Shown: piece after piece, positions 907-15,046 of the stretch | How positions within the stretch are numbered: position 1 is the stretch's first letter | Layout: the number at the start of each line of letters is the position of its first letter | Program-made: the position numbers and the translations under genes | NCBI GenBank assembly: GCA_030427145.1 | Contig: JAUHWT010000016.1 | Location: 62,001 to 126,000, forward strand | Source of the DNA: Alphaproteobacteria bacterium | GTDB taxonomy: Bacteria; Pseudomonadota; Alphaproteobacteria; Rhodobacterales; Rhodobacteraceae | DNA: 64,000 nucleotides | Direction: 5' to 3' | The notes under the pieces: generated by a model | What the model was told of the DNA's origin: nothing | Database searches by the model: none | Seen by the model: the letters and a program-made list of their open reading frames with translations, nothing else

Positions 907-1650
907 CTACAGCCAGCCCCCGTCCACGAGCACCGTCTGGTTCGTGATCGCACGGGCGGCATCTGAACACAGAAAAACCGCTACCCCTGCCACGTCCTCC
1001 GGTTCGGTGAACCGGCGCAAACACTGCCGCGACATCACCTCATCCTGCAATTCCGGCGTCAGCCACTTCTCCACCTGCCGTTCCGTCCGCACGAATCCCG
1101 GCAGCAGGCAGTTGACCCGCACGCCATCGGGACCGGCCTCGCGGGCAAGCGCGTGGGTCAAACCTTCGATGCCAGCCTTCGCGGTCACATACCCGACCGC
1201 ATCGGCAAGTCCTTCCCTCCAGGCAATTGAACCGAAATTCAGGATCACGCCAGACCTGTTTCTCCGCATTGTTGGCAATACCGCCTGGGCACAGAAAAAC
1301 TGGTGATCGAGATTGACCGACAACGTGTCACGCCAGCTTTCCGGCGTGACCTCATTCGTTTTATGCCGCATGTCATTAGCCGCGCCATTCACCAGCACAT
1401 CAATATCACCCGCTTCGTCGGCCAGCGCCATAATTCGCTCCCGCAGCGCCTCGGTACGGGTCAGATCCACTTCGTGGAACGTAACTGCCGAGCCAAGACC
1501 GTCGGCCAGATCCCGGCCCGCCGCACCGTTGACGTCAAAAAAGGAAACCCGCGCACCCTGAGCGGCGAAAGCCGTCACCACGGTCCGGCCGATACCGGTG
1601 GCACCGCCGGTTATCAGAATATGCTTGGCCTTCAGGCCGGTCTCAAGCAT
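907..1650 (-). CDS. SDR-family NAD(P)-dependent dehydrogenase
   Basis: Short-chain dehydrogenase of 247 aa, probably acting on a sugar or sugar-acid intermediate. The cofactor motif TGGATGIG is at 14-21, NGAAN at 88-92, the catalytic Ser at 141 and YVTAK with Tyr154/Lys158. The C-terminus ends in the VDGGWL tail common in sugar dehydrogenases of this family. I chose ATG 1650 because it forms a TGATG overlap with the stop of the upstream ATPase gene; a GTG one codon earlier is also possible. It is the last gene of the kinase/enolase/ABC operon. It may catalyse the first oxidation of the imported sugar, as sugar dehydrogenases do in non-phosphorylative routes, but the substrate cannot be read from sequence. 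Confidence 0.88.
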   Translation of the reverse strand: MLETGLKAKHILITGGATGIGRTVVTAFAAQGARVSFFDVNGAAGRDLADGLGSAVTFHEVDLTRTEALRERIMALADEAGDIDVLVNGAANDMRHKTNEVTPESWRDTLSVNLDHQFFCAQAVLPTMRRNRSGVILNFGSIAWREGLADAVGYVTAKAGIEGLTHALAREAGPDGVRVNCLLPGFVRTERQVEKWLTPELQDEVMSRQCLRRFTEPEDVAGVAVFLCSDAARAITNQTVLVDGGWL

Positions 1651-2759
1651 CACAGACGCCGTTCAGTGGTGGGGTCAAAAAGGCTGACCTTGCTCATGTC
1701 GATCTCAAAATCCGCGTTGGTCCCCGGAACCGGCGCGCCATCCGGCTCACAGACGATGATTGCCTCGGAGCCCGCAACCCGGCACATCAAAATCGTCTCG
1801 GATCCTGTTGGTTCATCCATTTCCACCGAGACCGGAACCGTCACTGATGGAATGCCCTTCCGCGACGCACGCGCCTCATGGGCAGGGCTGAAATGCTCAG
1901 GCCGTACACCAAGTGTCACCTTCTGTCCTTCCGACAGATTTGTTTGGTCGTCGCCCACAAGCGGGAGCACCGCACCATCCCCGCCGTCCAAAACCACACC
2001 CAACCCGTCCGCGCCCTGCGCTATCCTGGCCGGGAAAAAATTCATGTTGGGCGACCCCATGAATCCGGCAACAAACGTATTGGCGGGGCGCTCATAAATC
2101 TCCTTGGGCGCCGCGTACTGTTGCAGAACACCCTGGTTCATCACCGCAATCCGTGTCGCGAGCGTCATCGCCTCGATCTGGTCATGGGTCACGTAAACCG
2201 TCGTGCGGCCAACATTCTGATGCAGCTTCTTGATCTCAGCCCGCATCTCCACCCGCAGTTTCGCATCGAGATTGGAGAGCGGTTCATCAAACAGGAACAG
2301 TTTGGGATCCCGCACCAGGGCCCGACCCATCGCCACACGCTGGCGCTGTCCACCCGACAGTTGGCCCGGCTTGCGGTCCAGAAGCGGTTCAATCTGCAGC
2401 AATGAAGCTACCCGTGCGACCGTCTCCATCTGCACTGTTTTGTCAATGTTGCGACACTCCATGCCGAAGGTCATATTCTGCCGCACCGTCATCGTCGGGT
2501 AGAGCGCGTAGGACTGAAACACCATCGCGATGTCCCGGTCCTTGGGTGCTTCATTGTTCACGACCCTGTCCCCGATCATCACTTCGCCGGAGGTCACGCT
2601 CTCCAGCCCAGAAATGATGGACAGAAGCGTGGATTTGCCGCAGCCGGACGGTCCGACAAGCGCCACAAATTCGCCCGAATCCGCTTCCAGATTGATGTCC
2701 TTCAGCACCTCTACGGAGCCATAGCTCTTGCGCAGATTTTTGATTAGCAAAGACGACAT
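1650..2759 (-). CDS. Sugar ABC transporter ATPase (UgpC/MalK type)
   Basis: ATP-hydrolysing subunit of a CUT1 carbohydrate importer, 369 aa. Walker A GPSGCGKST is at 36-44, followed by the Q-loop in MVFQSYALYP, signature LSGGQRQR, Walker B LFLFDEP, D-loop SNLDAKLR and H-loop YVTHD. The C-terminal third is a TOBE/OB-type regulatory domain with GVRPEHF, as in MalK and UgpC. ATG 2759 is preferred because GGGGGAG lies just upstream. It follows the two permeases closely and overlaps the next SDR gene by one base, so it is co-transcribed with the importer and the catabolic genes. Confidence 0.95.
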   Translation of the reverse strand: MSSLLIKNLRKSYGSVEVLKDINLEADSGEFVALVGPSGCGKSTLLSIISGLESVTSGEVMIGDRVVNNEAPKDRDIAMVFQSYALYPTMTVRQNMTFGMECRNIDKTVQMETVARVASLLQIEPLLDRKPGQLSGGQRQRVAMGRALVRDPKLFLFDEPLSNLDAKLRVEMRAEIKKLHQNVGRTTVYVTHDQIEAMTLATRIAVMNQGVLQQYAAPKEIYERPANTFVAGFMGSPNMNFFPARIAQGADGLGVVLDGGDGAVLPLVGDDQTNLSEGQKVTLGVRPEHFSPAHEARASRKGIPSVTVPVSVEMDEPTGSETILMCRVAGSEAIIVCEPDGAPVPGTNADFEIDMSKVSLFDPTTERRL

Positions 2760-2770
2760 TGCCACTCCCC

Positions 2771-3670
2771 CTATTTGACCGCGCCGGAGGTCAGGCCCCG
2801 CACGAAATATTTTCCGCCAAACACGTAAACGAGCAGCGGTGGCAGAGCCGCGAAGATCACGGACGCCGCCTCAACATTGTAATGCCGCTCGCCGGTGCCC
2901 GAGCCTGAAAACGCTACGATTGCTGATGTGATGGGCTGGTTGGCACCGGATGTGAAAACCGTGCCAAAAAGAAACTCGTTCCAGATCCCGGTGAACTGCC
3001 AGATCACGCATACGATCAGAATCGGCGGCGAGAGCGGCAGCATGATGCGCCGGAAAATGCGCCAGAACCCGGCACCATCGATCCGCGCCGCTTTGATCAG
3101 GTCATCCGGCACAGCCAGGAAATAGTTCCGGCAAAACAGCGTGGTAAAACTCGCGCCCTGCACCGTATGGACCAAGACCAGCCCCGCAATCGTGTTCGAC
3201 AGCCCAATCTTGCCCAGAACAAACGCCCAGGGCAGCAGTGTCATCTGCGCCGGCAAAAACACACCCAGTGTAATCAGTCCGAATACCCATGTGTCATATT
3301 TGATGCGCCATTTTGACAGGGCATAGCCGTTGACGACACCAAACGCCGTCGACAGGATCGTAGCCGGAATGGTCATCATCAACGTGTTGGAGAAGTACCG
3401 CGAGACCCCCTCGCAGCTGCCCCCGATGCAGAAGGTACTCCAGGCCTCACCCCAGTACTGCCAGCTCATCACCTCAGGCAGGGATATGAACCCCTCCCGC
3501 ACGATGTCCTCTAGCGGCCGGTAGGCGTTCATGAGAATGATCACCAGTGGCGACAGGTAAAGCAGAGCGAAAAACCCCAGCAGCCCGTAGACAATCGTCT
3601 TCGCCCGGGCCTGACGAGCACTGCTGCCGGTCGCAAGCGGATCAAACGCATGATGTGTTGTATCAACCAT
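2771..3670 (-). CDS. Sugar ABC transporter permease (MalG-like)
   Basis: Inner-membrane permease of 299 aa, second permease of the CUT1 importer. It has a hydrophilic N-terminus, a first TM at about 27-48 and roughly five further TMs. The EAA coupling loop is visible as AARIDGAGFWRIFRRIMLPL, the site that docks on the ATPase. The periplasmic loop after TM1 contains two cysteines (FCIGGSC). The start overlaps the end of the first permease by 8 bases, indicating translational coupling. Confidence 0.94.
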   Translation of the reverse strand: MVDTTHHAFDPLATGSSARQARAKTIVYGLLGFFALLYLSPLVIILMNAYRPLEDIVREGFISLPEVMSWQYWGEAWSTFCIGGSCEGVSRYFSNTLMMTIPATILSTAFGVVNGYALSKWRIKYDTWVFGLITLGVFLPAQMTLLPWAFVLGKIGLSNTIAGLVLVHTVQGASFTTLFCRNYFLAVPDDLIKAARIDGAGFWRIFRRIMLPLSPPILIVCVIWQFTGIWNEFLFGTVFTSGANQPITSAIVAFSGSGTGERHYNVEAASVIFAALPPLLVYVFGGKYFVRGLTSGAVK

Positions 3671-4577
3671 GGGAGGGGCCCTCCTTCCGCGCGCGCCAGG
3701 CAGTCAAGATCACGTACGGCACAATGACAATGGCAAGCGCCACAAGGATCATCACGGCCGCCGCCGCACCCTGAGCGATCTGACCGCGCTGGAACATCAG
3801 GTCGTAAACAACAATCGCCGGAACCGTGGTTGCGACACCCGGCCCCCCCTGGGTCAGCGCCACCACCAGGTCATAAGTCTTGATGGCAAACTGAAGGAGC
3901 ACCACCGTGACGGCGACAAAAATGGGCCATATCGTCGGCAAAACCACCTTGCGATAGATCCGCGGCATGGAGGCTCCATCGATCTGGGCCGCCTTGATCA
4001 GATCTCCATCCACAGACCGCAATCCCGCCAGGATAAGCGCCATCGCAAAACCTGACGCGTGCCAGATGCCGGTGAACACCACGACGTAGAGCGCCATGTC
4101 CCTGTCGGTGATCCAGTCGAACTTCGCGCTCAGCCAGCCCAGATCATTCAGAGCCCGCTCCACACCGGTCTGCGGATGAAAAATCCAGCGCCAGACGGTG
4201 CCGGTCACGATGAAGGAAATGGCCAGCGGATAAAGAAAAATTGTCCGCCACACCGATTCAAACCGCACTCTCTGGTCAATGAGAATGGCGAGCAGCGTCC
4301 CAACACAGAGCGAACCCAAAACATACAGAATCCCGAACAGAAATAGGTTCTGGTAGGAGACAATCCAGCGTTTGCTCTTCCACAGAGCCGCGTATTCACC
4401 GAACCCGCCATAGGCCATGTTCGGAAGCAGCGTGGACTGGGACACGGAGATCCAAAGTGTCCAAGCCGAGAACACCACCACGTAAATGAACGCTGCTGCA
4501 AGGGTCGGCAAAAGCACCAGCTGCGGCGTCCAGCGGGCCAGCCGCTCGCCTGGGGAAGGCTGTATCGGATCAGGCAT
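3663..4577 (-). CDS. Sugar ABC transporter permease (MalF-like)
   Basis: Inner-membrane permease of 304 aa, first permease of the CUT1 importer, with six predicted TMs. The EAA loop appears as AAQIDGASMPRIYRKVVLPT. It sits between the solute-binding-protein gene and the second permease in the usual CUT1 order, and overlaps the latter by 8 bases. The substrate is inferred only from the operon, which points to a sugar or sugar acid. Confidence 0.94.
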   Translation of the reverse strand: MPDPIQPSPGERLARWTPQLVLLPTLAAAFIYVVVFSAWTLWISVSQSTLLPNMAYGGFGEYAALWKSKRWIVSYQNLFLFGILYVLGSLCVGTLLAILIDQRVRFESVWRTIFLYPLAISFIVTGTVWRWIFHPQTGVERALNDLGWLSAKFDWITDRDMALYVVVFTGIWHASGFAMALILAGLRSVDGDLIKAAQIDGASMPRIYRKVVLPTIWPIFVAVTVVLLQFAIKTYDLVVALTQGGPGVATTVPAIVVYDLMFQRGQIAQGAAAAVMILVALAIVIVPYVILTAWRARKEGPSHG

Positions 4578-4661
4578 GTTTGACCGTTTTCTGATTGATT
4601 GTGTGAAGGATCCGTGCCGGCCAACGGGAGCAGGTCGACACGGTCATCAAACCGTCGGAGC

Positions 4662-5927
4662 CTAGCTTTGCAGCTCAACCGCGTCGGCAAGCTGGTTGGC
4701 GGCTTCTTCCGGTGTGATGGAATCGTCGGCGACAAACTCGGTGATCACTTCCATCATGGCGCCCCGGTACTTCTGCAGAACCGTCATGTTATGCGCCATC
4801 GACCGAACGAGTGTTCCCTCGTCGACCGAAGCCTTGAGGTCCTCAAGACCCTTCTGCTGGCACTGGGTGAACCCACCCGTGGACAGATCAACATCCGTAC
4901 GCGACGGGATCGAGCCCTTGGCGACGTTGAACGTTACCTGAAACTCCGGCGACATGATAGTGCTGGCCAATAGCTTCTGACCCTCTACGTAGTCAGGGTC
5001 GGTCTGATTGAAAAACACCACCGAATCCGCATTCAATATGAACCCGGTTCCACCCCAGTCTACCGGCGTCTGGTTGCAGAGATAGTCCTCGCCGTCCTCG
5101 AAACCGGCCAGATTAGCCGAGGCCACGGTCCAGTCACCCATCAGGAAAAACGCCGCCTCGCCGGACATGGTCATGGTCATCGACTGCTCCCAGGAGCGGC
5201 CGTTGATACCGTCATCCATGTAACCAACCATTTTGCGAAGCTGCGCGAAAGCATCGATCATACCCTGGCTGCGCATTGCTTCGACGTCGGCTTCCTGGAA
5301 TGCCTCGCGGTACAGGTCCACATCCATGCCATAGACAACACTGTCAAACGTGGTCGTATCCGACCAGTCCGCCGCACCATGCGCAATACAGGTGTAACCC
5401 GCAGCCATAATCGCATCACAGGCTGCATTGAACTCGTCCCAGGTTGTGGGAACCTCCATGCCGACCTCATCAAGGATCGCAGGCGAGCTATAGAGCCAGT
5501 TGACGCGATGAATATTCATGGGTGCCGCGACCCAACTCCCCGTGGGCTTCATCACCGACGTCAGTTCCGGTGCAACGACATCGTCCCAGCCTTCCGCGGC
5601 CGCAACCTCGTCCAGGTTGGCAGTGGTTCCGGTTGCGTTCCACTCAGCAATTTCCGGACCCTTCAGCTGCACGGCGGCAGGCGCATTTCCCGCCACCACA
5701 TCCGACCGCAGCTTGGCCAGCGTGTTGGATGTGTGACCCGAAATCGCGGTCTGCTCCCAGGTTCCGCCGGCGGCCTCAAACATTTCACCGAGCTTTGCAA
5801 TCGCAGCGGCTTCCGAACCCTGCGCCCACTGGTGCATCATATTGGTTTTCGGTTCGGCCTGCGCGCCCGTTCCGAAGGCCATAACCGCCAGGATCGAAGC
5901 CCCGGTCATCGTGCTGTTGAGTTTCAT
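4662..5927 (-). CDS. Sugar ABC transporter solute-binding protein (CUT1)
   Basis: Periplasmic binding protein of 421 aa (SBP_bac_1 type) that would deliver a carbohydrate to the permeases at 2771-4577. It has a short Sec signal, with cleavage likely after GTGAQA (about residue 24). The mature N-terminus (HQWAQGSEAAAIAKLGEMFE) resembles the glucose/mannose-type CUT1 binding proteins. A strong AGGAGGAAGAAG ribosome site precedes ATG 5927. An 84-base gap to the first permease contains only an imperfect stem. Confidence 0.94.
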   Translation of the reverse strand: MKLNSTMTGASILAVMAFGTGAQAEPKTNMMHQWAQGSEAAAIAKLGEMFEAAGGTWEQTAISGHTSNTLAKLRSDVVAGNAPAAVQLKGPEIAEWNATGTTANLDEVAAAEGWDDVVAPELTSVMKPTGSWVAAPMNIHRVNWLYSSPAILDEVGMEVPTTWDEFNAACDAIMAAGYTCIAHGAADWSDTTTFDSVVYGMDVDLYREAFQEADVEAMRSQGMIDAFAQLRKMVGYMDDGINGRSWEQSMTMTMSGEAAFFLMGDWTVASANLAGFEDGEDYLCNQTPVDWGGTGFILNADSVVFFNQTDPDYVEGQKLLASTIMSPEFQVTFNVAKGSIPSRTDVDLSTGGFTQCQQKGLEDLKASVDEGTLVRSMAHNMTVLQKYRGAMMEVITEFVADDSITPEEAANQLADAVELQS

Positions 5928-5987
5928 CTTCTTCCTCCTCCATCGGACAACCCGATTCGTTTTTTTTGGGTAGTTATCGGCGCGTTC

Positions 5988-6749
5988 TCAGATCGAGATC
6001 CCGCCATCGACATTCACCGTCTGCCCCGTCACAAAGGCTCCATCCGCCGATGCAAGCCATGCCGCCGTCGAGGCAATCTCTTCCGGTTTGGCAAAACGCC
6101 CGGCGGGCTGACGGTCCAGAAACCATTTTTCAGCCGCCTCAGGGCTGCCCAGTTCTTCCGCCAGATCCGCGATCCGCTGACGCAGCGACGGTGTGTCCAC
6201 CACGCCCGGGCACAGCGCGTTGAAGCGAATTCCGTCCTTCATATAGTCGGCTGCGCAGGCTTTCATCAGTCCGATCACGCCTCCCTTCGCCGCCCCATAG
6301 GCTGCACGAAACGGATACCCCTTGAGCGATGACGCAAGCGAGGCTACGAGGATCACCGATCCGCCATGCTCCCGCATCCGCGGTACGGCTGACCGCGCCA
6401 CGTGGAACGCACTGTCGAGACAAATCGCCTGGCTCCTGCGCCAGTCGGCATCCGTCGTTCCCTCCACCGTGCCGTGATGCACAAACCCGACGGCGTGAGC
6501 CATCACTTCGATACGTGCACGGCGCGACAGCCAATTTTCCACTGCCTCCGGGTCGGTCGCATCCACCGCCGTCGTAGACGCAGCCTCCAAACCATCTAGG
6601 AGCTTCGCATCTATGTCCGATACATGAACCTCCGCGCCTTCGGCCAGAAACCGCTCCGCGATGGCACGCCCAATGCCCTGTCCAGCCGCAGTGACACAGG
6701 CAACCTGACCGGAAAGCCGCTGTTGTGGCAGGAGAGTTGCACCGCTCAA
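5988..6749 (-). CDS. SDR dehydrogenase, 2-keto-3-deoxy-L-fuconate dehydrogenase-like
   Basis: SDR of 253 aa. The cofactor motif TAAGQGIG (20-27), Ser137, YGAAK (Tyr151/Lys155), the GFVHHGT segment and the RQPAGRFAKPEEIA segment are those I associate with 2-keto-3-deoxy-L-fuconate 4-dehydrogenases. In that family the enzyme oxidises C4 of a 2-keto-3-deoxy sugar acid to the 2,4-diketo acid, which an FAH-family hydrolase then cleaves; such a hydrolase is encoded two genes upstream. The usual NNAG motif reads HAVGF here. The start is TTG in a TTGA overlap with the upstream SDR stop, and there is no in-frame ATG nearby. Function by family resemblance and context; exact sugar unknown. Confidence 0.85.
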   Translation of the reverse strand: MSGATLLPQQRLSGQVACVTAAGQGIGRAIAERFLAEGAEVHVSDIDAKLLDGLEAASTTAVDATDPEAVENWLSRRARIEVMAHAVGFVHHGTVEGTTDADWRRSQAICLDSAFHVARSAVPRMREHGGSVILVASLASSLKGYPFRAAYGAAKGGVIGLMKACAADYMKDGIRFNALCPGVVDTPSLRQRIADLAEELGSPEAAEKWFLDRQPAGRFAKPEEIASTAAWLASADGAFVTGQTVNVDGGISI

Positions 6750-7495
6750 TAGGTCGCCCTCCCGCCCGACAGGTCAAAGACCGCTCCCGTGGTGAACGAG
6801 TTCTCGGCGGAGGCCATCCAGGCCACCATGTTGGTGATCTCTTCTACCGTCACGAAACGGCCGCGCGGGATTTTCGAGAGCATGAACGCGACAAATTCCT
6901 CAGAGACCTGATCGAAAATCCGGGTCTTCGCAGCCGCCGGCGTGATGCAGTTGACCGCAATGTCATTTCCGGCGAGTTCCTTGCCCAATGACTTGGTCAT
7001 CGCAATCACCGCCGCCTTCGACGCGGAATAGGCCGACGCGTTCGGATTACCCTCCTTGCCCGCAATGGACGCCACATTGACGATCCGTCCGTAATTACGA
7101 TCAACCATGCCCGGCGTCACCGTACGGCAGGTGTTGAAGGTGCCATCGACATTCACTTCCTGGACCTTGCGCCAGGCTTCGGCGGGATACTCGGCAAGTG
7201 TGGAGGTCGGCCCGGCAATGCCTGCGCTGTTGACCAGCACGTCGACCTTGCCAAACCTTGCCTCAGTCGCGGCCATTGCGGCCTCAACACTGGCCAGATC
7301 GGACACATCCGTCTGGATCAGGGCCAGTCGGTTCTCCCCAATCGCAGCGACCCGCGCTTCCGGGCTGCTGACGTCCATGTCCCAAACCGCGATGCTGGCA
7401 CCGGACGCCGCCAGCCGTTCGGCCACGGCCGCACCAATTCCGTTGCACCCGCCGGTGATCGCCGCCACCTGGCCCTTAAAATCGTAACTGTTCAT
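6746..7495 (-). CDS. SDR-family oxidoreductase
   Basis: Classical SDR of 249 aa with the cofactor motif TGGCNGIG, the NSAG motif, catalytic Ser in NVASIAGKEG and YSASK. It resembles 3-oxoacyl-ACP reductase/glucose-dehydrogenase-type SDRs, which are often generic sugar or polyol dehydrogenases. ATG 7495 follows a GTG, and the upstream hydrolase stop overlaps it as TGATG, so the two genes are coupled. One of three SDRs in the operon, presumably handling a different oxidation step. Confidence 0.88.
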   Translation of the reverse strand: MNSYDFKGQVAAITGGCNGIGAAVAERLAASGASIAVWDMDVSSPEARVAAIGENRLALIQTDVSDLASVEAAMAATEARFGKVDVLVNSAGIAGPTSTLAEYPAEAWRKVQEVNVDGTFNTCRTVTPGMVDRNYGRIVNVASIAGKEGNPNASAYSASKAAVIAMTKSLGKELAGNDIAVNCITPAAAKTRIFDQVSEEFVAFMLSKIPRGRFVTVEEITNMVAWMASAENSFTTGAVFDLSGGRATY

Positions 7496-8352
7496 CACGC
7501 GGCTCCCGTCGCCACGACTGTCTGGGACTGTTTCCCCAAACCTTCGATACCAAGGCGAACGGTGTCGCCCTCATTGAGCCAGACCTGTGGGTTCATACCG
7601 GCCCCAACGCCCGGCGGCGTGCCGGTGCAGATCAGATCGCCGGGCTCAAGCCGCGTGAATTCGGACATGTAGCTGACGATGGTCGCCACATCGAAAATCA
7701 TCGTGCCGGTGTTTCCTGTCTGCATGCGCTGCCCGTTCACGTCGAGCCACATGCCCAGGTTCTGAACATCGGCGATCTCATCCTTCGTCGCGAGAAACGG
7801 CCCGGTTGGACAAAAATTCGGGAAACTCTTGCCTTTCACCCACTGCCCCGACCGCTCCATCTGCCAGGCGCGTTCGGAGACGTCGTTGACGAGAACAAAC
7901 CCCGCGATGTGATCCATCGCTTCGGCCTTGGTGATGTTCAGGGCCGGCTTTCCGATGACAATGCCCAGTTCAACCTCCCAGTCGAGTTTGGTCATCCTGG
8001 GCGATTTCAGGATGTCATCGTTCGGACCGCAGTAAGTCACGGTCGACTTGTTGAACAGGATCGGCTCGTCGGGAACCGGCAGACCGGCCTCCGCGGCGTG
8101 ATCCGAATAGTTCAGACCAACACACCAGATGTTGAAGGGCTGCGCCACCGGTGGAGCAAGTCGCTTACCCTCGATATCGGCCTCTGGAATGGTCTTGAGA
8201 TCAATCGCCGCAAGCTGCGCCAGCAGTTCCAGTGACAGGGTGCGCGGCCCAAAATCGTCGACCACCGAGGACACGTCACGGGGCGTACCATCGCCGTCGA
8301 TAATGCAGGGAATTTTGCGCCCGTAACGGTCGCCATAGCGGGAGAGTTTCAC
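7495..8352 (-). CDS. Fumarylacetoacetate-hydrolase-family enzyme
   Basis: FAH-fold protein of 285 aa, most like the 2,4-diketo-3-deoxy-sugar-acid hydrolases. The motif VGLNYSDHAAE, metal ligands in DWEVELG, the KSFPNFCPTGP segment and the C-terminal GDLICTGTPPGVG are all present. Family members cleave a C-C bond in 2,4-diketo acids to give pyruvate plus a hydroxy acid. The frame can be extended upstream to 8454, but the GTG at 8352 begins the family-typical KLSRYGDR start and makes a GTGA overlap with the enolase-paralog stop. With the KDF-type SDR it forms the oxidation-then-cleavage pair of the non-phosphorylative fucose/rhamnose routes. Confidence 0.9.
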   Translation of the reverse strand: MKLSRYGDRYGRKIPCIIDGDGTPRDVSSVVDDFGPRTLSLELLAQLAAIDLKTIPEADIEGKRLAPPVAQPFNIWCVGLNYSDHAAEAGLPVPDEPILFNKSTVTYCGPNDDILKSPRMTKLDWEVELGIVIGKPALNITKAEAMDHIAGFVLVNDVSERAWQMERSGQWVKGKSFPNFCPTGPFLATKDEIADVQNLGMWLDVNGQRMQTGNTGTMIFDVATIVSYMSEFTRLEPGDLICTGTPPGVGAGMNPQVWLNEGDTVRLGIEGLGKQSQTVVATGAA

Positions 8353-9665
8353 GATGCGGTGTCCTTGTAGTTCCTGTGGCCCCACCACGTATTGGCGAGA
8401 GGCCGTCCGCCGACGAATGCGGCGCTGCCCAATGCGTCCTGAATCCGGAGGCATTCATTCCATTTGATCATTCGTTCCGAGCGGGTGAATGAACCGACCT
8501 TCAACTGTCCACCGCCGAGGCCGGTTGCGAGATGGCTGATCGACACATCTTCCGTCTCACCGGAGCGGGCCGAAACGATGGCACCCCACCCCTTTGACTG
8601 CGCCGCGCGGAATGTCTCGAACCCCTCAGAGACGGTTCCCGCCTGATTGACCTTAATGAGAACCGCGTTGCAGGCGCCGTCCCTCTGCGCTTCCCACACC
8701 AGGTCCGCGTTCGTCACCAGGTAGTCATCCCCGATGATCTGCACACGGCTGCCAAATCTGCGCGTGAACTCCACGGTGCCTCGCGTGTCGTCCTCGGCCA
8801 ACGGGTCCTCAATCGAAGCAATGGGGTAACTGTCGAGCCAACCGCCAAGCAGCTCGATCATCCCCGAGCTGTCCAACTCCCGGTCCTCCAGCGCCAGCCG
8901 ATATCGCCCGTCGCGCCCAAATTCCGAAGCCGCAATGTCGAGCGAAACCACAACCCGCTCGCCCGGTTTTTCCCCGGCCTTCTCGATAGCGGAGATCAGC
9001 GTTTCCAACGCTTCCTCATTACTGTCGAAAACCGGCCACCAGCCGCCCTCATCAGCGACACCGGCCAGTTTTCCGCGCGATTTCATTATGTCGCCTGCCG
9101 CGAAATAGACTTCACTGGTCACCTCCATGACCTCGTCAAAACTGCCGGCTCCCGGCACCATGATCATGAAGTCCTGGATATCGACACGCCGCCCCGCATG
9201 GGCACCACCACCGAAGATCTGTATCTCGGGCAAAGGCAGAGACGGGCTGAACCCGGTTGTCTCCGACACGTGCTGCCAGAGTGGCCTACCCGCATCCGCC
9301 GCCGCGGCATGAAGCACTGCAAGCGATGTCGCCACGGTGGCATTGCCACCCAGCGTATCCTTCAGCGGCGAGGGGTCCAGCGCCAGAATGGCCTGATCCA
9401 CGCCGCCCTGATTCGCCGCATCCATGCCGGTCAGCGCAGAAGCAATGGCACCGTTCACACTACCCAGAGCCGCCTGCACGCCCTGGCCACGCAGCGCATC
9501 TCCGCCGTCACGACGGTCGACCGCCTCACGCGTGCCCCGCGACGCTCCGGCCGGTGCAATCGCCCGACCCAGAGCACCATTTTCGAGGATCACATCCACT
9601 TCGACCGTCGGTCTGCCACGGGAATCCCATACCCGCCGGCCCTTTATTTCCCTAATCACTGTCAC
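8349..9665 (-). CDS. Divergent enolase paralog (altered active site)
   Basis: True enolase fold of 438 aa, not a mandelate-racemase-type dehydratase. Compared with yeast enolase, it keeps Ser39 (AGAS), His159 (GGAHAG), Gln167, Glu211 (DEGG), the metal ligands Asp246 (SLDIAASEF), Glu295 (SIEDP) and Asp320 (GDD), the base Lys345 (KVNQAGT), and Lys396 (LKVGS). It differs at Thr40 (Arg), Glu168 (Asp, IQDFMI) and His373 (Ala, SARSGETED instead of SHRSGETED). These changes lie around the leaving-group and phosphate pocket, which argues against housekeeping glycolysis. GTG start in a GTGA overlap with the kinase stop. In this operon it may dehydrate a (phospho)sugar acid; that is inference. Confidence 0.88.
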   Translation of the reverse strand: MTVIREIKGRRVWDSRGRPTVEVDVILENGALGRAIAPAGASRGTREAVDRRDGGDALRGQGVQAALGSVNGAIASALTGMDAANQGGVDQAILALDPSPLKDTLGGNATVATSLAVLHAAAADAGRPLWQHVSETTGFSPSLPLPEIQIFGGGAHAGRRVDIQDFMIMVPGAGSFDEVMEVTSEVYFAAGDIMKSRGKLAGVADEGGWWPVFDSNEEALETLISAIEKAGEKPGERVVVSLDIAASEFGRDGRYRLALEDRELDSSGMIELLGGWLDSYPIASIEDPLAEDDTRGTVEFTRRFGSRVQIIGDDYLVTNADLVWEAQRDGACNAVLIKVNQAGTVSEGFETFRAAQSKGWGAIVSARSGETEDVSISHLATGLGGGQLKVGSFTRSERMIKWNECLRIQDALGSAAFVGGRPLANTWWGHRNYKDTAS

Positions 9666-10675
9666 GCGTCCAAATCCTTCAATCGGGCTTTGAGTGTTTC
9701 GGTTAAGTCGCTGAGTGTTTGGACCGGCTCCACGATCATCGGCTGCGCCAGCGCGCGAACCTGCTGCCGTCGCGTCTCATCCAGATATTCGACCGGCGAT
9801 TTCCCATCGATCCGGGCCAACATGAGAGCAGGCAACAACCGACACACACGTGCCTCCAGATCCGCGGGTTCCTCCCACGACACATGCGGGCCATAGCCTT
9901 CCCAGAACCGCGCGATCTCTCCAAGGAACGCCGCTCGCATCCCTGGCAGATGGATCGCCTTCAGCACCAGATGATTCAGGCAGAACGACGGATCAAAACT
10001 GGCGTCCCCCATGGTCGCGCATTCGGCGTCGAGTATCACCGGACCACCGTTGCGCATCAGAATGTTCTTTGGGCTGACATCCCCGTGCACAAGAACCTGA
10101 TCCGACCGATAGAGCACGTCCGCCAAATCATGCAGCCGTGCCTCAAGTTCCGGATGCCGGCCCGCCGTAGAAATCAGATACGGCTCGATCCGCAGCGCCC
10201 GAAAATCATCGCGGTTACGAAACGCGGACCGGTCGAAGTCATCTCCGGAAGACACCGCATGTATACGCCCGACCACATCCCCTACTGCGCGCGCCTCCCC
10301 GTTGGGACGAGTGCCTTCCAGCATCGCGGTCTTCCAAAGATGGACGTCCGGGCCGTCCAGAAATTCCATGACAAAACCATGCGCGTGTTCGGACCGACCA
10401 AACAGCCGAACCGCCGATTGCGGCACCACCCGGGCCGCCACCTCCAGCCAGGCATATTCGGCGGCATTGCGGTGCACAGGTGCACGCCAATCCGCCGCGA
10501 CCTTTAGCTTCGGCAAAGCCAGCTTCACGCAGTAACGTGTGTCACCGACCCTCAGTGCCGCGATGTCGGACGCAACCCCACCTGTCAAAGGCGTAACGTC
10601 GCGCACCTCTTCCCGACGACCGAGGCCCAGTTCCTCGATCAGATCACAGCATTTTTCCGGCAGGGATTGAGACAT
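9662..10675 (-). CDS. APH/choline-kinase-fold small-molecule kinase
   Basis: Phosphotransferase of 337 aa in the aminoglycoside-phosphotransferase superfamily. Visible features are the nucleotide-loop LTGGVASD near residue 30, the lysine in YCVKLA, the Brenner-type catalytic motif LVHGDVSPKN and the metal-binding ILDAECATMGD motif. In catabolic operons this fold usually phosphorylates a small alcohol or sugar rather than giving drug resistance. It is the first gene of the operon that includes the enolase paralog, FAH hydrolase and sugar importer, and starts just after the operator at 10696. I infer a sugar or sugar-acid kinase; acceptor and position unknown. Confidence 0.88.
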   Translation of the reverse strand: MSQSLPEKCCDLIEELGLGRREEVRDVTPLTGGVASDIAALRVGDTRYCVKLALPKLKVAADWRAPVHRNAAEYAWLEVAARVVPQSAVRLFGRSEHAHGFVMEFLDGPDVHLWKTAMLEGTRPNGEARAVGDVVGRIHAVSSGDDFDRSAFRNRDDFRALRIEPYLISTAGRHPELEARLHDLADVLYRSDQVLVHGDVSPKNILMRNGGPVILDAECATMGDASFDPSFCLNHLVLKAIHLPGMRAAFLGEIARFWEGYGPHVSWEEPADLEARVCRLLPALMLARIDGKSPVEYLDETRRQQVRALAQPMIVEPVQTLSDLTETLKARLKDLDA

Positions 10676-10695
10676 TTCGACTTTACATGCTGCTT

Positions 10696-10711
10696 ATGTT
10701 CACGTGAACAT
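10696..10711. promoter_or_regulatory. LacI-type operator, perfect 16-bp palindrome
   Basis: ATGTTCACGTGAACAT is a perfect palindrome with the central CG typical of LacI/PurR-family operators. It lies between the kinase operon and the divergent LacI gene, immediately next to the minus-strand -10 element, so it should cover the transcription start. Binding would repress the catabolic operon until the inducer appears. Confidence 0.85.
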
Positions 10712-10739
10712 TTCATATTGGCATCTGTTTTTTTGTCAA
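10712..10739 (-). promoter_or_regulatory. Promoter of the kinase/enolase/sugar ABC operon
   Basis: On the minus strand TTGACA (10739-10734), a 16-base spacer and TATGAA (10717-10712) fit a sigma70-type promoter. The 16-bp palindrome follows directly downstream, so repressor and polymerase sites overlap functionally. Confidence 0.7.
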
Positions 10740-10783
10740 GCCTCGTTCTTCCGTGATAGGGGTTTCCGGACAGGAGCAGTAAG

Positions 10784-11758
10784 TTGAACCGTGTAACAAT
10801 CAAGTCCATTGCCAACGACCTTGGCATCTCGCACATGACCGTATCGCGGGCGCTTTCAAACAGCCCCAACGTCCAGAAGGAAACCCGCGAGGCCGTCCAG
10901 AAACGCGCCCGCGAACTGGGCTATGTCAGGAACGCAGCCGCGATGGTGATGCGCGGCGATGCCCCGAAAATCGTTGGACTTTTGCTTCCAAACATCGTCA
11001 ACGAATTCTACGCGCGTTTCGCCAACGACATGGCCACCGCCTGTGAGAGCCACTCGCTCCAGCTTATCATCCACCTGACCAATGATGACGTCGCCAACCA
11101 GCAGCAGGCCCTGGACCGTCTGCAGGAGGTTCAGGCCTCATCGGTTGTCATGGTACCTGCCCCAAACGGGACGGACGGGGACACTCCAAACACCGGGTCA
11201 ATGCGCACCATCGAACTGATCCGCCAGAGCAGAAACGCGCCCGACACGCCCGCCATTCTGGTCGATGACGGCCCCGCGATTCGGGCGGCAACGGCCCATC
11301 TCGCCCGGGCCGGACATACTCACATTGCCTATATCGGTGCCACGAGCGACCTCTCCAGCGGCCGCAGACGTCTCGAAGCATTTGTCCAGGGAACTATGGA
11401 AGCAGGCCTCACCGTCCCGCCAGAAATGATTCATACCGGCGCGCCCTCCTTCGCTATGGGCTGTGACAAGGCCAATATCATCTTGGAGGAGAGTCGCGCT
11501 ACAGCGATACTCTGCGGTGGTTTTGAAATCTCCAACGGTGCTCTGAGCGCCGTCATCGACGGCTCCAGAAACATGGAAAGGAAAATTGCCTTTGTGGGCT
11601 ACGGCGATCCTTCGTTCTATGCGTGGATCGAAAACGGCGTATCAACGGTCCATGTCCCCGTAACCGAACTCGCCCACCGTGCGGTCGATCTCATTACAAC
11701 ACAAAACGGCGAAGCATCGGCCTCAAACGCGTTCCCGGCAAAATTTATCGCCAGATAG
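10784..11758 (+). CDS. LacI-family transcriptional regulator
   Basis: Repressor of 324 aa with an N-terminal LacI HTH (VTIKSIANDLGISHMTVSRA, from residue 4), a hinge region near 47-60 and a periplasmic-binding-protein-like effector domain. It starts at TTG 10784, preceded by AGGAG at 10772-10776. It is divergent from the ten-gene sugar-acid operon, and the 16-bp palindrome lies between them, so it probably represses that operon and possibly itself. The effector is likely the imported sugar or a pathway intermediate. Confidence 0.93.
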   Translation: MNRVTIKSIANDLGISHMTVSRALSNSPNVQKETREAVQKRARELGYVRNAAAMVMRGDAPKIVGLLLPNIVNEFYARFANDMATACESHSLQLIIHLTNDDVANQQQALDRLQEVQASSVVMVPAPNGTDGDTPNTGSMRTIELIRQSRNAPDTPAILVDDGPAIRAATAHLARAGHTHIAYIGATSDLSSGRRRLEAFVQGTMEAGLTVPPEMIHTGAPSFAMGCDKANIILEESRATAILCGGFEISNGALSAVIDGSRNMERKIAFVGYGDPSFYAWIENGVSTVHVPVTELAHRAVDLITTQNGEASASNAFPAKFIAR

Positions 11759-14005: not shown

Positions 14006-15046
14006 TCAGGCTGTCGCCCGCCTCACAACCTCAAATCCAAGGTCGTAGATCGTCTCACCACCCCCGCCCGGGCCCAGCCGGTCGAGCATCGCACCAGCCG
14101 CAATGCTTCCCATCTCGCTACGATCCACCCGGACCGTCGTCAGCGGCGGGTCCAGATGCGCGGCAAATTCCTGATCTCCAAAGCCGATCACGGCAATATC
14201 ACCCGGCACATCATAGCCACGCGCCCGGGCCTCCACCAAAATTCCCTGGGCAATCAGGTCCGAACTGCAAAACACGACCCCCGGCGACCCGCCAATGCGC
14301 CCTACCAGTTCCGACAGTCCCGCCCGCCCGGCAGCCAGGCTGGCCTGAGCCGGGAGTCTTACAGCCTCCACCCTGGTTCCGCCTTTGCGGGTGAATGTCT
14401 CCGCGAAGGCAGCCGCCCGACGCAGCGCCCGCTCATCATTGGCCGACACTGTTGCGGCTTGGCGATATCCAGCCTCGATGGCAAATTCCGCTACCTCACG
14501 CCCCGCGCCGTGATGTGAAAAACCGACGCAGATGTCTATTGGGCTGTCCGTCAGTTCCCATATCTCCACCACCGGTATGCCTGCGCCCAGCAGTATGCGC
14601 CGTGATTGTGCCGTGTGGTTGATCCCGGTCAGAAGCATCGCATCCGGCCGCCGCGACAGATGCCTGGAGATCGTCGTCTCCTCATCCTCCCGGTCGAACC
14701 CGTATTCCGTCAATAGCACCTGATAGTCGTGCTCCCGCACCCGGTCGGTGAACTCCTTGATGAAGGATGTATAGGTGATGTTGGTAATGGACGGCACCAG
14801 GGCAGAGATCAGCCGCGACCGGCTGGAGGCAAGGGCACCCGCCACCGCATTGGGCACAAATCCTGTCGCCTCAATCGCCTCACGGATCCGGCGCAGGGTC
14901 TCCGGTGAGACTTTCGATGGATCCGACAAAGCGCGCGACACCGTTACTTGGCTCACACCGGCCATGCGGCCCACTGCCGCCATGGTGACGCGCGAACCGC
15001 CGGCCCTGCCCTGATCCCTGGAACTTCCGTCTGCCATGTTCGACAC
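14006..15046 (-). CDS. LacI-family regulator of the pentonate module
   Basis: Regulator of 346 aa with the HTH from about residue 20 (VTMAAVGRMAGVSQVTVSRA) and a C-terminal sugar-binding-like domain, resembling gluconate-repressor-type LacI proteins. It is 28 bases after the transporter permease gene, so it is probably transcribed with the TctCBA-type transporter. The likely targets are the two ATGTAT-type inverted repeats at 18258 and 18358, between the transporter and the dehydratase operon. Confidence 0.92.
   Translation of the reverse strand: MSNMADGSSRDQGRAGGSRVTMAAVGRMAGVSQVTVSRALSDPSKVSPETLRRIREAIEATGFVPNAVAGALASSRSRLISALVPSITNITYTSFIKEFTDRVREHDYQVLLTEYGFDREDEETTISRHLSRRPDAMLLTGINHTAQSRRILLGAGIPVVEIWELTDSPIDICVGFSHHGAGREVAEFAIEAGYRQAATVSANDERALRRAAAFAETFTRKGGTRVEAVRLPAQASLAAGRAGLSELVGRIGGSPGVVFCSSDLIAQGILVEARARGYDVPGDIAVIGFGDQEFAAHLDPPLTTVRVDRSEMGSIAAGAMLDRLGPGGGGETIYDLGFEVVRRATA

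What the first reader, a model, noticed from the sequence alone, without database searches (positions are those of the whole stretch)
907..11758. Candidate new sugar or sugar-acid pathway: kinase, enolase, SDRs, diketo-acid hydrolase and CUT1 importer
One ten-gene operon combines an APH-fold kinase, an enolase paralog, a KDF-dehydrogenase-like SDR, an FAH-family 2,4-diketo-acid hydrolase, two more SDRs and a CUT1 importer under a LacI repressor. The last steps look like the fuconate/rhamnonate route, but the entry steps are replaced. A speculative route: the kinase phosphorylates the 2-OH of a sugar acid, and the enolase paralog dehydrates it to a PEP-like enol phosphate.
Basis: inference. Interest (0 to 1): 0.72.

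Follow-up and report, generated by a model that had tools for sequence, protein, structure and literature searches.

The report
Kinase–enolase pair in sugar-acid operon
A ten-gene sugar-import and sugar-breakdown operon of a bacterium carries a kinase and a modified enolase that travel together through many bacteria and some archaea and may replace the usual sugar-acid dehydratase, a step that still has to be tested in the laboratory.

Summary
The ten-gene operon and its divergent LacI gene are real. The APH-fold kinase (KIN) and enolase paralog (ENO) form a widespread module: 95 of 100 distinct KIN loci examined also hold ENO, 79 within 100 bp, from Proteobacteria to Rhodococcus, Persicobacter and haloarchaea. 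ENO keeps the catalytic lysine/glutamate, metal and phosphate residues but differs at two leaving-group-side positions (Glu to Asp in 74 of 74; His to Ala or Gly in 74 of 74). Downstream enzymes resemble L-KDR and L-KDF 4-dehydrogenases and L-DKDR hydrolase; SDR2 keeps three substrate arginines and lacks the methyl-sensing tryptophan (19 of 19). A palindrome, inferred LacI operator, lies in all 32 distinct KIN–lacI gaps compared. In 28 genomes or records it recurs before importer, 1-dehydrogenase and carboxylate-transporter genes; no opened site stands before a separate dehydratase. CUT1+FAH loci without KIN carry a classical dehydratase in 8 of 8, those with KIN in 7 of 18 (p=0.007, post hoc; a looser rule shows no difference, p=0.76). 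Against: some loci hold both; Ensifer and one relative lack only KIN–ENO; 67 of 100 pairs have no FAH nearby. Best reading: phosphorylation-assisted dehydration of an aldonate (0.45); main rival: a released 2,3-dihydroxy acid made into PEP (0.25).

The parts
907..1653 (-). SDR3, sugar 1-dehydrogenase-like SDR (aldose to lactone, inferred)
   Evidence: Best NCBIfam NF053674 D-xylose 1-dehydrogenase 302.8 bits (cut-off 400); solved relatives 4LVU and sulfoquinovose 1-dehydrogenase 9GWU
1650..2765 (-). CUT1 ATPase (UgpC/MalK type)
   Evidence: NF008653 448.6 bits, over cut-off 432
2771..3670 (-). CUT1 permease 2
   Evidence: PF00528
3663..4577 (-). CUT1 permease 1
   Evidence: PF00528
4662..5927 (-). 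Sugar-binding protein of the importer; nearest solved relatives are binding proteins of ABC sugar transporters (glucose as ligand is recalled)
   Evidence: 8HQQ 308.6 bits, 5DVF 288.8 bits
5988..6749 (-). SDR2, L-2-keto-3-deoxyfuconate 4-dehydrogenase-like; substrate arginines kept, methyl-sensing Trp replaced by Ile
6746..7498 (-). SDR1, L-2-keto-3-deoxyrhamnonate 4-dehydrogenase-like
   Evidence: 9JVE 280.1, 9KQ1 271.4 and 6D9Y 266.6 bits; 6D9Y called putative L-KDRDH in PMC11199699
7495..8454 (-). FAH-family 2,4-diketo-3-deoxy acid hydrolase (true start probably near 8352)
   Evidence: 8GSR L-DKDR hydrolase 272.2 bits; NF053535 360 bits, below cut-off
8349..9665 (-). ENO, enolase paralog with D165 and A366 in place of canonical Glu and His
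9662..10675 (-). KIN, APH-fold kinase, nearest fold 5-methylthioribose kinase
10697..10710 (.). Palindrome TGTTCACGTGAACA, inferred LacI operator
10784..11758 (+). LacI-family repressor gene, divergent
   Evidence: 17 models, none over its cut-off; divergent from KIN in relatives

Best explanation
An oxidative sugar pathway in which the aldonate dehydratase is replaced by two enzymes. The CUT1 importer brings in a sugar (inferred, hexose-like). SDR3 oxidises it at C1 to the lactone/aldonate (inferred). KIN phosphorylates an aldonate hydroxyl, presumably 2-OH (inferred). ENO removes the C2 proton and the C3 hydroxyl, giving a PEP-like enol phosphate (inferred; catalytic and phosphate-binding residues kept, leaving-group side opened for a C3-substituted acid). 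The phosphate is lost to water or back to ADP, giving the 2-keto-3-deoxy acid (inferred, no enzyme identified). SDR1 and SDR2 oxidise C4 of opposite epimers (by homology; SDR2's substrate residues checked). FAH cleaves the 2,4-diketo acid to pyruvate and a 2-hydroxy acid (by homology). LacI controls the set through the palindrome at 10697-10710 (inferred from conservation).
For: KIN-ENO linkage in 95 of 100 distinct loci. ENO signature in all 74 distinct paralogs examined, against 5 of 5 canonical enolases. SDR2 keeps R148/R192/R214 of L-KDFDH in 19 of 19 distinct proteins, so the intermediate is a 2-keto-3-deoxy sugar acid. Operator in 33 of 33 KIN-lacI gaps (32 distinct), 27 exact and 6 with one mismatch. 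In the genomes of L021 and L023 a second exact site stands before the unlinked CUT1 genes (with SDR3 in the former). Of the sites with at most one mismatch in 28 genomes or records that were chosen because they carry KIN and lacI, none that I opened or placed by coordinates stands before a separate dehydratase; one (G554:C3:174316) was not opened. CUT1+FAH loci: dehydratase in 8 of 8 without KIN, 7 of 18 with KIN (p=0.007). The own genome already has a canonical enolase and a MOFRL-type (PF13660) glycerate kinase homolog, so ordinary D-glycerate use would not need the pair. KIN-ENO-SDR1 sets without FAH exist (L044, L051, L052, L055, L060).
Against: The dehydratase contrast was chosen after seeing the loci, rests on related genomes and on a sample of FAH loci, and vanishes with a looser criterion (14 of 31 with KIN, 9 of 17 without, p=0.76). 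Both kinds coexist: IlvD in or at the end of the cluster in L028, L056, L063, L115, L142; MR in L040/L043; UxuA in L160 and near L057 and L071. Ensifer L161/L162 are about 88% identical to L160 but lack exactly KIN-ENO, and L135 has an internal deletion from KIN residue 59 to ENO residue 337; both keep a dehydratase, so there the pair is dispensable. L092 has MR-FAH-SDR-KIN without ENO. In L041 the inferred regulon is only KIN, ENO and a TTT transporter. In Rhizobium loci a PEP carboxylase gene stands one gene away from KIN, which suits PEP as product. No phosphatase was recognised in the operon.
Confidence: 0.45

Rival explanations
1. KIN-ENO acts after FAH. The pathway degrades a hexose, FAH releases pyruvate plus a 2,3-dihydroxy acid (glycerate, possibly the L form that housekeeping enolase would not handle), KIN makes the 2-phosphate and ENO makes PEP. 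The sugar-acid dehydratase is inside the cluster in some species and elsewhere in others.
For: Dehydratases lie near FAH in 14 of 31 KIN loci under the loose rule; KIN-ENO is dispensable where a dehydratase stays; the pair often has no FAH near it, once with only a TTT transporter in the inferred regulon; a PEP carboxylase gene is one gene away from KIN in Rhizobium; 2-keto-acid reductases (CtBP or PanE type) lie near it elsewhere; the SBP resembles binding proteins of sugar transporters; L092 has MR, FAH, SDR and KIN with no ENO.
Against: 17 of 31 KIN-FAH-SDR loci show none of the three dehydratase types within 10 kb, and no opened operator site leads to one elsewhere. Own genome already has a glycerate kinase homolog and a canonical enolase. 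ENO's two invariant changes look like room at C3, which glycerate does not need (inference). CtBP and PanE enzymes give the D form (recalled), not L. In L092's genome no enolase at all was found at E <= 1e-40, so its missing ENO may be incomplete data.
Confidence: 0.25
2. ENO eliminates a C3 group other than hydroxyl. If the sugar carries a 6-sulfonate, FAH would release 3-sulfolactate; KIN would make phosphosulfolactate and ENO would expel sulfite to give PEP, the reverse of the ComA reaction (recalled).
For: Both changed ENO residues hold the leaving hydroxyl (role recalled), as if acid help were not needed; arginines in the mobile loop at window 159/160 in 62 and 65 of 74; TTT and TRAP transporters in the inferred regulon of some relatives; SDR3 resembles sulfoquinovose 1-dehydrogenase among others.
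Against: No sulfite exporter, sulfite dehydrogenase or sulfolactate lyase appears in the family tables for neighbours that I scanned (one search scanned 124 of 199 listed neighbour proteins and showed only the 25 commonest of 128 families; one neighbour there is TauD-like). SDR3's best NCBIfam model is D-xylose 1-dehydrogenase. The catalytic Glu kept in ENO suits a hydroxyl leaving group.
Confidence: 0.07
3. KIN and ENO process an unrelated acid and are only co-regulated with the sugar genes, for example a 2-keto-3-hydroxy acid first reduced by CtBP or PanE enzymes in other species.
For: Varied neighbours in distant loci: URO-D, RACo and pterin-binding genes (L094), cupin and dioxygenase or VOC genes (L103, L108), cupin and FAH genes (L104), a cluster that looks biosynthetic (L107).
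Against: In the window's clade the pair shares operator, operon and regulator with the sugar genes.
Confidence: 0.15

Closest known systems
Non-phosphorylative L-fucose / L-rhamnose (2,4-diketo-acid) pathway
   Same: FAH-family hydrolase, 4-dehydrogenases of the L-KDR and L-KDF types, sugar 1-dehydrogenase, sugar importer
   Different: No aldonate dehydratase in the window operon; kinase and enolase paralog instead; methyl-sensing Trp252 of L-KDFDH is Ile. Ordinary plasmid operons of the kind carry MR enzymes including one annotated L-fuconate dehydratase
Enolase (phosphopyruvate hydratase)
   Same: Fold, metal ligands, catalytic Lys/Glu, phosphate-binding Arg/Ser
   Different: Canonical Glu168 and His373 (yeast numbers, recalled) are Asp and Ala/Gly; loop arginines; Trp at window 210 where canonical enolases have Ala; paired with KIN; the genome has another, canonical enolase
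5-methylthioribose kinase and other APH-fold kinases
   Same: Fold, nearest by Foldseek (2PYW, E 1.8e-16, TM 0.85/0.69)
   Different: 14-17% identity in these hits; MTRK model 44.7 bits against cut-off 275; own set of invariant residues
Kinase-assisted dehydrations (25-hydroxysteroid kinase; LxmK of class V lanthipeptides)
   Same: A kinase found among the fold matches activates an alcohol before elimination (PMC8449060 passages; folds; LxmK role recalled)
   Different: There the phosphate is the leaving group; here it would stay and the neighbouring hydroxyl leave

Membership tests
Enolase (phosphopyruvate hydratase) | Family model over curated cut-off | tested here: met
   TIGR01060 443.6 bits, cut-off 300
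Enolase (phosphopyruvate hydratase) | Metal ligands, catalytic Lys/Glu and phosphate Arg/Ser (roles recalled) | tested here: met
   Window D243, E286, D314, K338, E206, R367, S368 kept
Enolase (phosphopyruvate hydratase) | Glu168 and His373 (yeast numbering, recalled) at the leaving-group side | tested here: not met
   Asp in 74 of 74; Ala 72 and Gly 2 of 74; canonical set Glu and His 5 of 5
Enolase (phosphopyruvate hydratase) | 2-phosphoglycerate to PEP activity | not testable with these tools
   needs enzyme assay
Non-phosphorylative 2,4-diketo-acid sugar pathway | Diketo-acid hydrolase of the DKDR type | tested here: inconclusive
   Best solved relative 8GSR but NF053535 360 bits, below cut-off 500
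Non-phosphorylative 2,4-diketo-acid sugar pathway | 2-keto-3-deoxy acid 4-dehydrogenase with the three substrate arginines | tested here: met
   R148, R192, R214 kept in 19 of 19 distinct proteins
Non-phosphorylative 2,4-diketo-acid sugar pathway | 6-deoxy sugar recognition by Trp252 | tested here: not met
   Ile in 19 of 19
Non-phosphorylative 2,4-diketo-acid sugar pathway | Aldonate dehydratase (MR, IlvD or UxuA type) in the operon | tested here: not met
   None among the ten genes; near FAH in 14 of 31 KIN loci under the loose rule
5-methylthioribose kinase | Equivalog model over cut-off | tested here: not met
   44.7 bits, cut-off 275
Glycerate kinases (MOFRL PF13660; GarK PF02595, accession recalled) | Family domain in KIN | tested here: not met
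   APH is the only Pfam family for KIN at E 0.001; the genome has a separate PF13660 gene
Phosphosulfolactate chemistry (ComA-like, reversed) | Sulfonate substrate and sulfite handling | tested here: inconclusive
   No such neighbour in the families shown (capped list); relation of ENO to ComA not tested

The most novel reading that the evidence does not exclude
KIN-ENO is a general phosphorylation-assisted dehydratase for 2,3-dihydroxy acids, found in bacteria and haloarchaea, in which a dedicated enolase subfamily makes PEP-like enol phosphates of sugar acids; the phosphate may be handed back to ADP so that the net step costs no ATP.
Probability: 0.35. Interest if true: 0.82.

Novelty: new variant of a known kind. 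Interest (0 to 1): 0.62.

Why it matters
Enolase is taught as a single-reaction glycolytic enzyme. A conserved enolase subfamily with a rebuilt leaving-group site and its own kinase partner would add a new dehydration strategy to sugar-acid metabolism. In the plasmid records I read, the pair is mostly annotated as phosphopyruvate hydratase plus (aminoglycoside) phosphotransferase, and a scan of one genome per species gave at least 553 stretches that encode a KIN relative (the ENO partner was checked in about 100 loci), so a misannotation may be widespread. Even if the rival is right, the pair would define a new route from a small acid to PEP.

Tried and rejected
Plain glycolytic enolase duplicate: set aside because two leaving-group residues differ in 74 of 74 and the genome has a canonical enolase. 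Plain D-glycerate 2-kinase: the genome has a PF13660 gene and KIN does not match that family. L-fucose or L-rhamnose as substrate: disfavoured by loss of Trp252 in SDR2. Sulfolactate desulfonation: kept as a weak rival. Extra exact operator in the own genome: stands before a NUDIX and a PHO4 phosphate-transporter gene, and a one-mismatch site before a pst-like phosphate importer; no link to the pathway could be made. A one-mismatch site shared by two Roseibium genomes (G566, G560) has on one side eight proteins that are 100% identical between the two and no pathway gene. Literature: nine full-text searches listed no paper that by title or abstract start describes this gene pair; only held open-licence papers were searched and I saw listings, capped at 6-20 rows. 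From PMC11199699 and PMC8449060 I read passages only. A structure model of ENO was not made.

Results against my reading: dehydratase co-occurrence under the looser rule shows no difference; KIN-ENO is absent from otherwise near-identical Ensifer operons; L020 and L092 have KIN without ENO in the locus; L020's genome has only one enolase match at E <= 1e-40, 43% identical to ENO, and L092's none. Three further loci without ENO (L065, L086, L093) have KIN at a contig end. The loci are the nearest relatives (best 80 of 553), so linkage in remoter kin is not measured.

Counts mended after a recheck: one search counted 101 KIN loci, but L147 is the same record as L062, so 100 (eleven duplicates dropped in all); 78 ENO rows are 74 distinct; 20 SDR2 rows are 19 distinct; the loose dehydratase table had left out L160, L164 and L165 through a slip (13 of 30 against 7 of 15 became 14 of 31 against 9 of 17). 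The CUT1 table stayed at 7 of 18 against 8 of 8; its KIN-less loci come from 18 of the roughly 100 FAH places listed, five of the twelve high-identity places and plasmid hits that I chose to fetch. It counts L021 (MR gene convergent with lacI) and L143 (IlvD upstream of the operator) as having a dehydratase; not counting these two gives p=0.002, and a rough hand collapse of related operons gives p=0.04. The gene caller was home-made and missed or mis-started some genes. Row labels in the script are off by one or more; I cite window residue numbers.
Full report
What is there. Ten minus-strand genes run from 10675 down to 907, with lacI divergent at 10784-11758. In order of transcription they are KIN, ENO, FAH, SDR1, SDR2, SBP, two permeases, ATPase, SDR3.

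The kinase-enolase pair. In 61 related genomes KIN relatives of 42-66% identity were found in eight besides the own. Ten of 32 matching plasmid records were read first, including Rhodococcus and the archaeon Haladaptatus; Persicobacter and Halomarina followed. After dropping duplicates, 100 loci with KIN were counted: 95 also hold an ENO relative, 79 of them within 100 bp (mending). Three of the five exceptions have KIN at a contig end; L020 and L092 do not. This sample is biased to the closest relatives. In the window's family KIN occurs in 18 of 296 genomes, a patchy distribution that suggests horizontal movement or loss (inference).

What kind of enzymes. A model of KIN (47 sequences, mean pLDDT 95.8) is nearest in fold to 5-methylthioribose kinase, then PsiK and LxmK. 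It has invariant Arg and Lys residues besides the kinase motifs, which suit an acidic substrate (inference). ENO passes the enolase model and is one of two enolases in its genome. In 74 distinct KIN-linked paralogs the canonical Glu of the QEF motif is Asp in all, and the His of the SHRSGE motif is Ala in 72 and Gly in 2; five canonical enolases keep both. From memory, in yeast enolase these are Glu168 and His373, which with Glu211 hold the leaving hydroxyl or a water there; two searches gave no open paper that I could use to confirm it. The equivalents of Lys345, the metal ligands and the phosphate-binding residues are kept, and of Glu211 in 73 of 74 (L107 has Lys). I read this as unchanged chemistry with a rebuilt C3 side.

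The rest of the pathway. SDR2 is nearest DHRS6 and L-KDFDH. PMC11199699 (passages) reports that Arg148, Arg192 and Arg214 recognise the substrate and Trp252 its C6 methyl. In 19 of 19 distinct SDR2 proteins of these loci, the window's included, the three arginines are kept and the Trp is Ile. SDR1 is nearest 9JVE, 9KQ1 and 6D9Y, the last described in that paper as a putative L-KDR 4-dehydrogenase, an enzyme of opposite C4 preference. FAH is nearest the L-DKDR hydrolase. The SBP is nearest binding proteins of ABC sugar transporters (8HQQ, 5DVF), glucose-binding by my recollection. Together this points to a sugar that is not 6-deoxy, possibly a hexose, handled in both C4 configurations (inference).

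Regulon. The gap between KIN and lacI carries TGTTCACGTGAACA in 33 of 33 loci compared (27 exact, 6 with one mismatch; L079 and L143 are one genome, so 32 distinct), at 10697-10710 in the window. 28 genomes or records that carry KIN and lacI were searched with up to one mismatch; each has the site, as expected, while the reversed control pattern appears in 5. Extra sites stand before CUT1 genes (unlinked in the genomes of L021 and L023, with SDR3 in the former; within the operon in several others by coordinates), before TTT transporters (G561, and by coordinates the records of L101 and L102) and before a TRAP transporter (the contig of L028). No site that I opened or placed stands before a stand-alone dehydratase; one one-mismatch site (G554:C3:174316) was not opened. 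Sites at a transposase gene, a mutase gene, two phosphate-transporter loci and the Roseibium stretch look unrelated. Sites with two or more mismatches would have been missed.

Does the pair replace the dehydratase? Among fetched FAH loci with a CUT1 permease within 10 kb, 8 of 8 without KIN carry a classical dehydratase (MR, IlvD or UxuA), against 7 of 18 with KIN, the window included (p=0.007). This fits replacement. It was chosen after seeing the data, ignores relatedness, and a looser rule (any SDR1/SDR2 relative near FAH) gives 9 of 17 against 14 of 31, p=0.76, no difference. Two natural losses cut both ways: Ensifer L161 and L162 match Sinorhizobium L160 at about 88% on both sides but lack exactly KIN-ENO, keeping UxuA; L135 keeps KIN residues 1-59 and ENO residues 337-432 at the old place and has an MR dehydratase. 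They show that the pair can be lost where a dehydratase remains, as replacement predicts, but also as a later, dispensable step predicts.

Other contexts. 67 of the 100 loci have no FAH within 11 kb (some contigs are short). Neighbours of the pair elsewhere include CtBP-type 2-hydroxyacid dehydrogenases (15 loci, some also with FAH), PanE-type reductases (7 loci), PEP carboxylase one gene from KIN in Rhizobium, URO-D/RACo/pterin-binding genes in L094 and a cluster that looks biosynthetic in an Enterobacter plasmid. In the KIN tree five pairs without FAH (L027, L030, L034, L035, L038) group with two FAH operons (L026, L028) at 97/92 support (the bootstrap had not settled). These contexts keep the rival (a small acid to PEP) alive.

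Verdict. The operon is a variant of the diketo-acid sugar pathway that carries a conserved kinase-enolase module for which I found no description. Replacement of the aldonate dehydratase is the best single reading at 0.45; conversion of a released 2,3-dihydroxy acid to PEP is the main rival at 0.25. Substrate, phosphorylation site and the fate of the enol phosphate are inferred and need enzyme assays.

Noticed in passing
L196 8845-8858 and L197 8175-8188 (own genome): The only other copies of the operator with at most one mismatch in the own genome stand before a NUDIX-PHO4 phosphate-transporter gene pair (exact) and a pst-like phosphate importer (one mismatch); possibly chance, but both are phosphate uptake.
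   Followed up: partly
L135 10246-10719: Remnant of the module: matches to KIN residues 1-59 and ENO residues 337-432, in an operon that keeps MR dehydratase, lactonase, FAH and SDR2.
   Followed up: partly
L160 versus L161/L162, about 7.6-10.2 kb of L160: Clean presence/absence of KIN-ENO between closely related rhizobial operons, a natural experiment.
   Followed up: yes
L094 5092-11008: KIN-ENO directly downstream of URO-D, RACo and pterin-binding (corrinoid methyltransferase-type) genes; a second KIN relative lies at about 1.7 kb.
   Followed up: no
L107 8208-19946 (Enterobacter plasmid): Distant KIN and ENO relatives in what looks like a natural-product cluster; this ENO lacks the Glu equivalent to Glu211.
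   Followed up: no
L103, L087, L090, L110: Rhizobium loci with PEP carboxylase, CtBP-type dehydrogenase and KIN in a row, and ENO beside a cupin gene nearby.
   Followed up: partly
window 14006-15046: A second LacI-like regulator gene (LacI-type helix-turn-helix by eye, no search run), minus strand, probably of another operon.
   Followed up: no
L040 13915-14934, L043 13915-14934, L135 7636-8655, L160 6524-7597: A conserved protein of about 340-360 residues with no Pfam match (members of L040, L135 and L160 scanned), near FAH and SDR2 in dehydratase-containing operons.
   Followed up: partly
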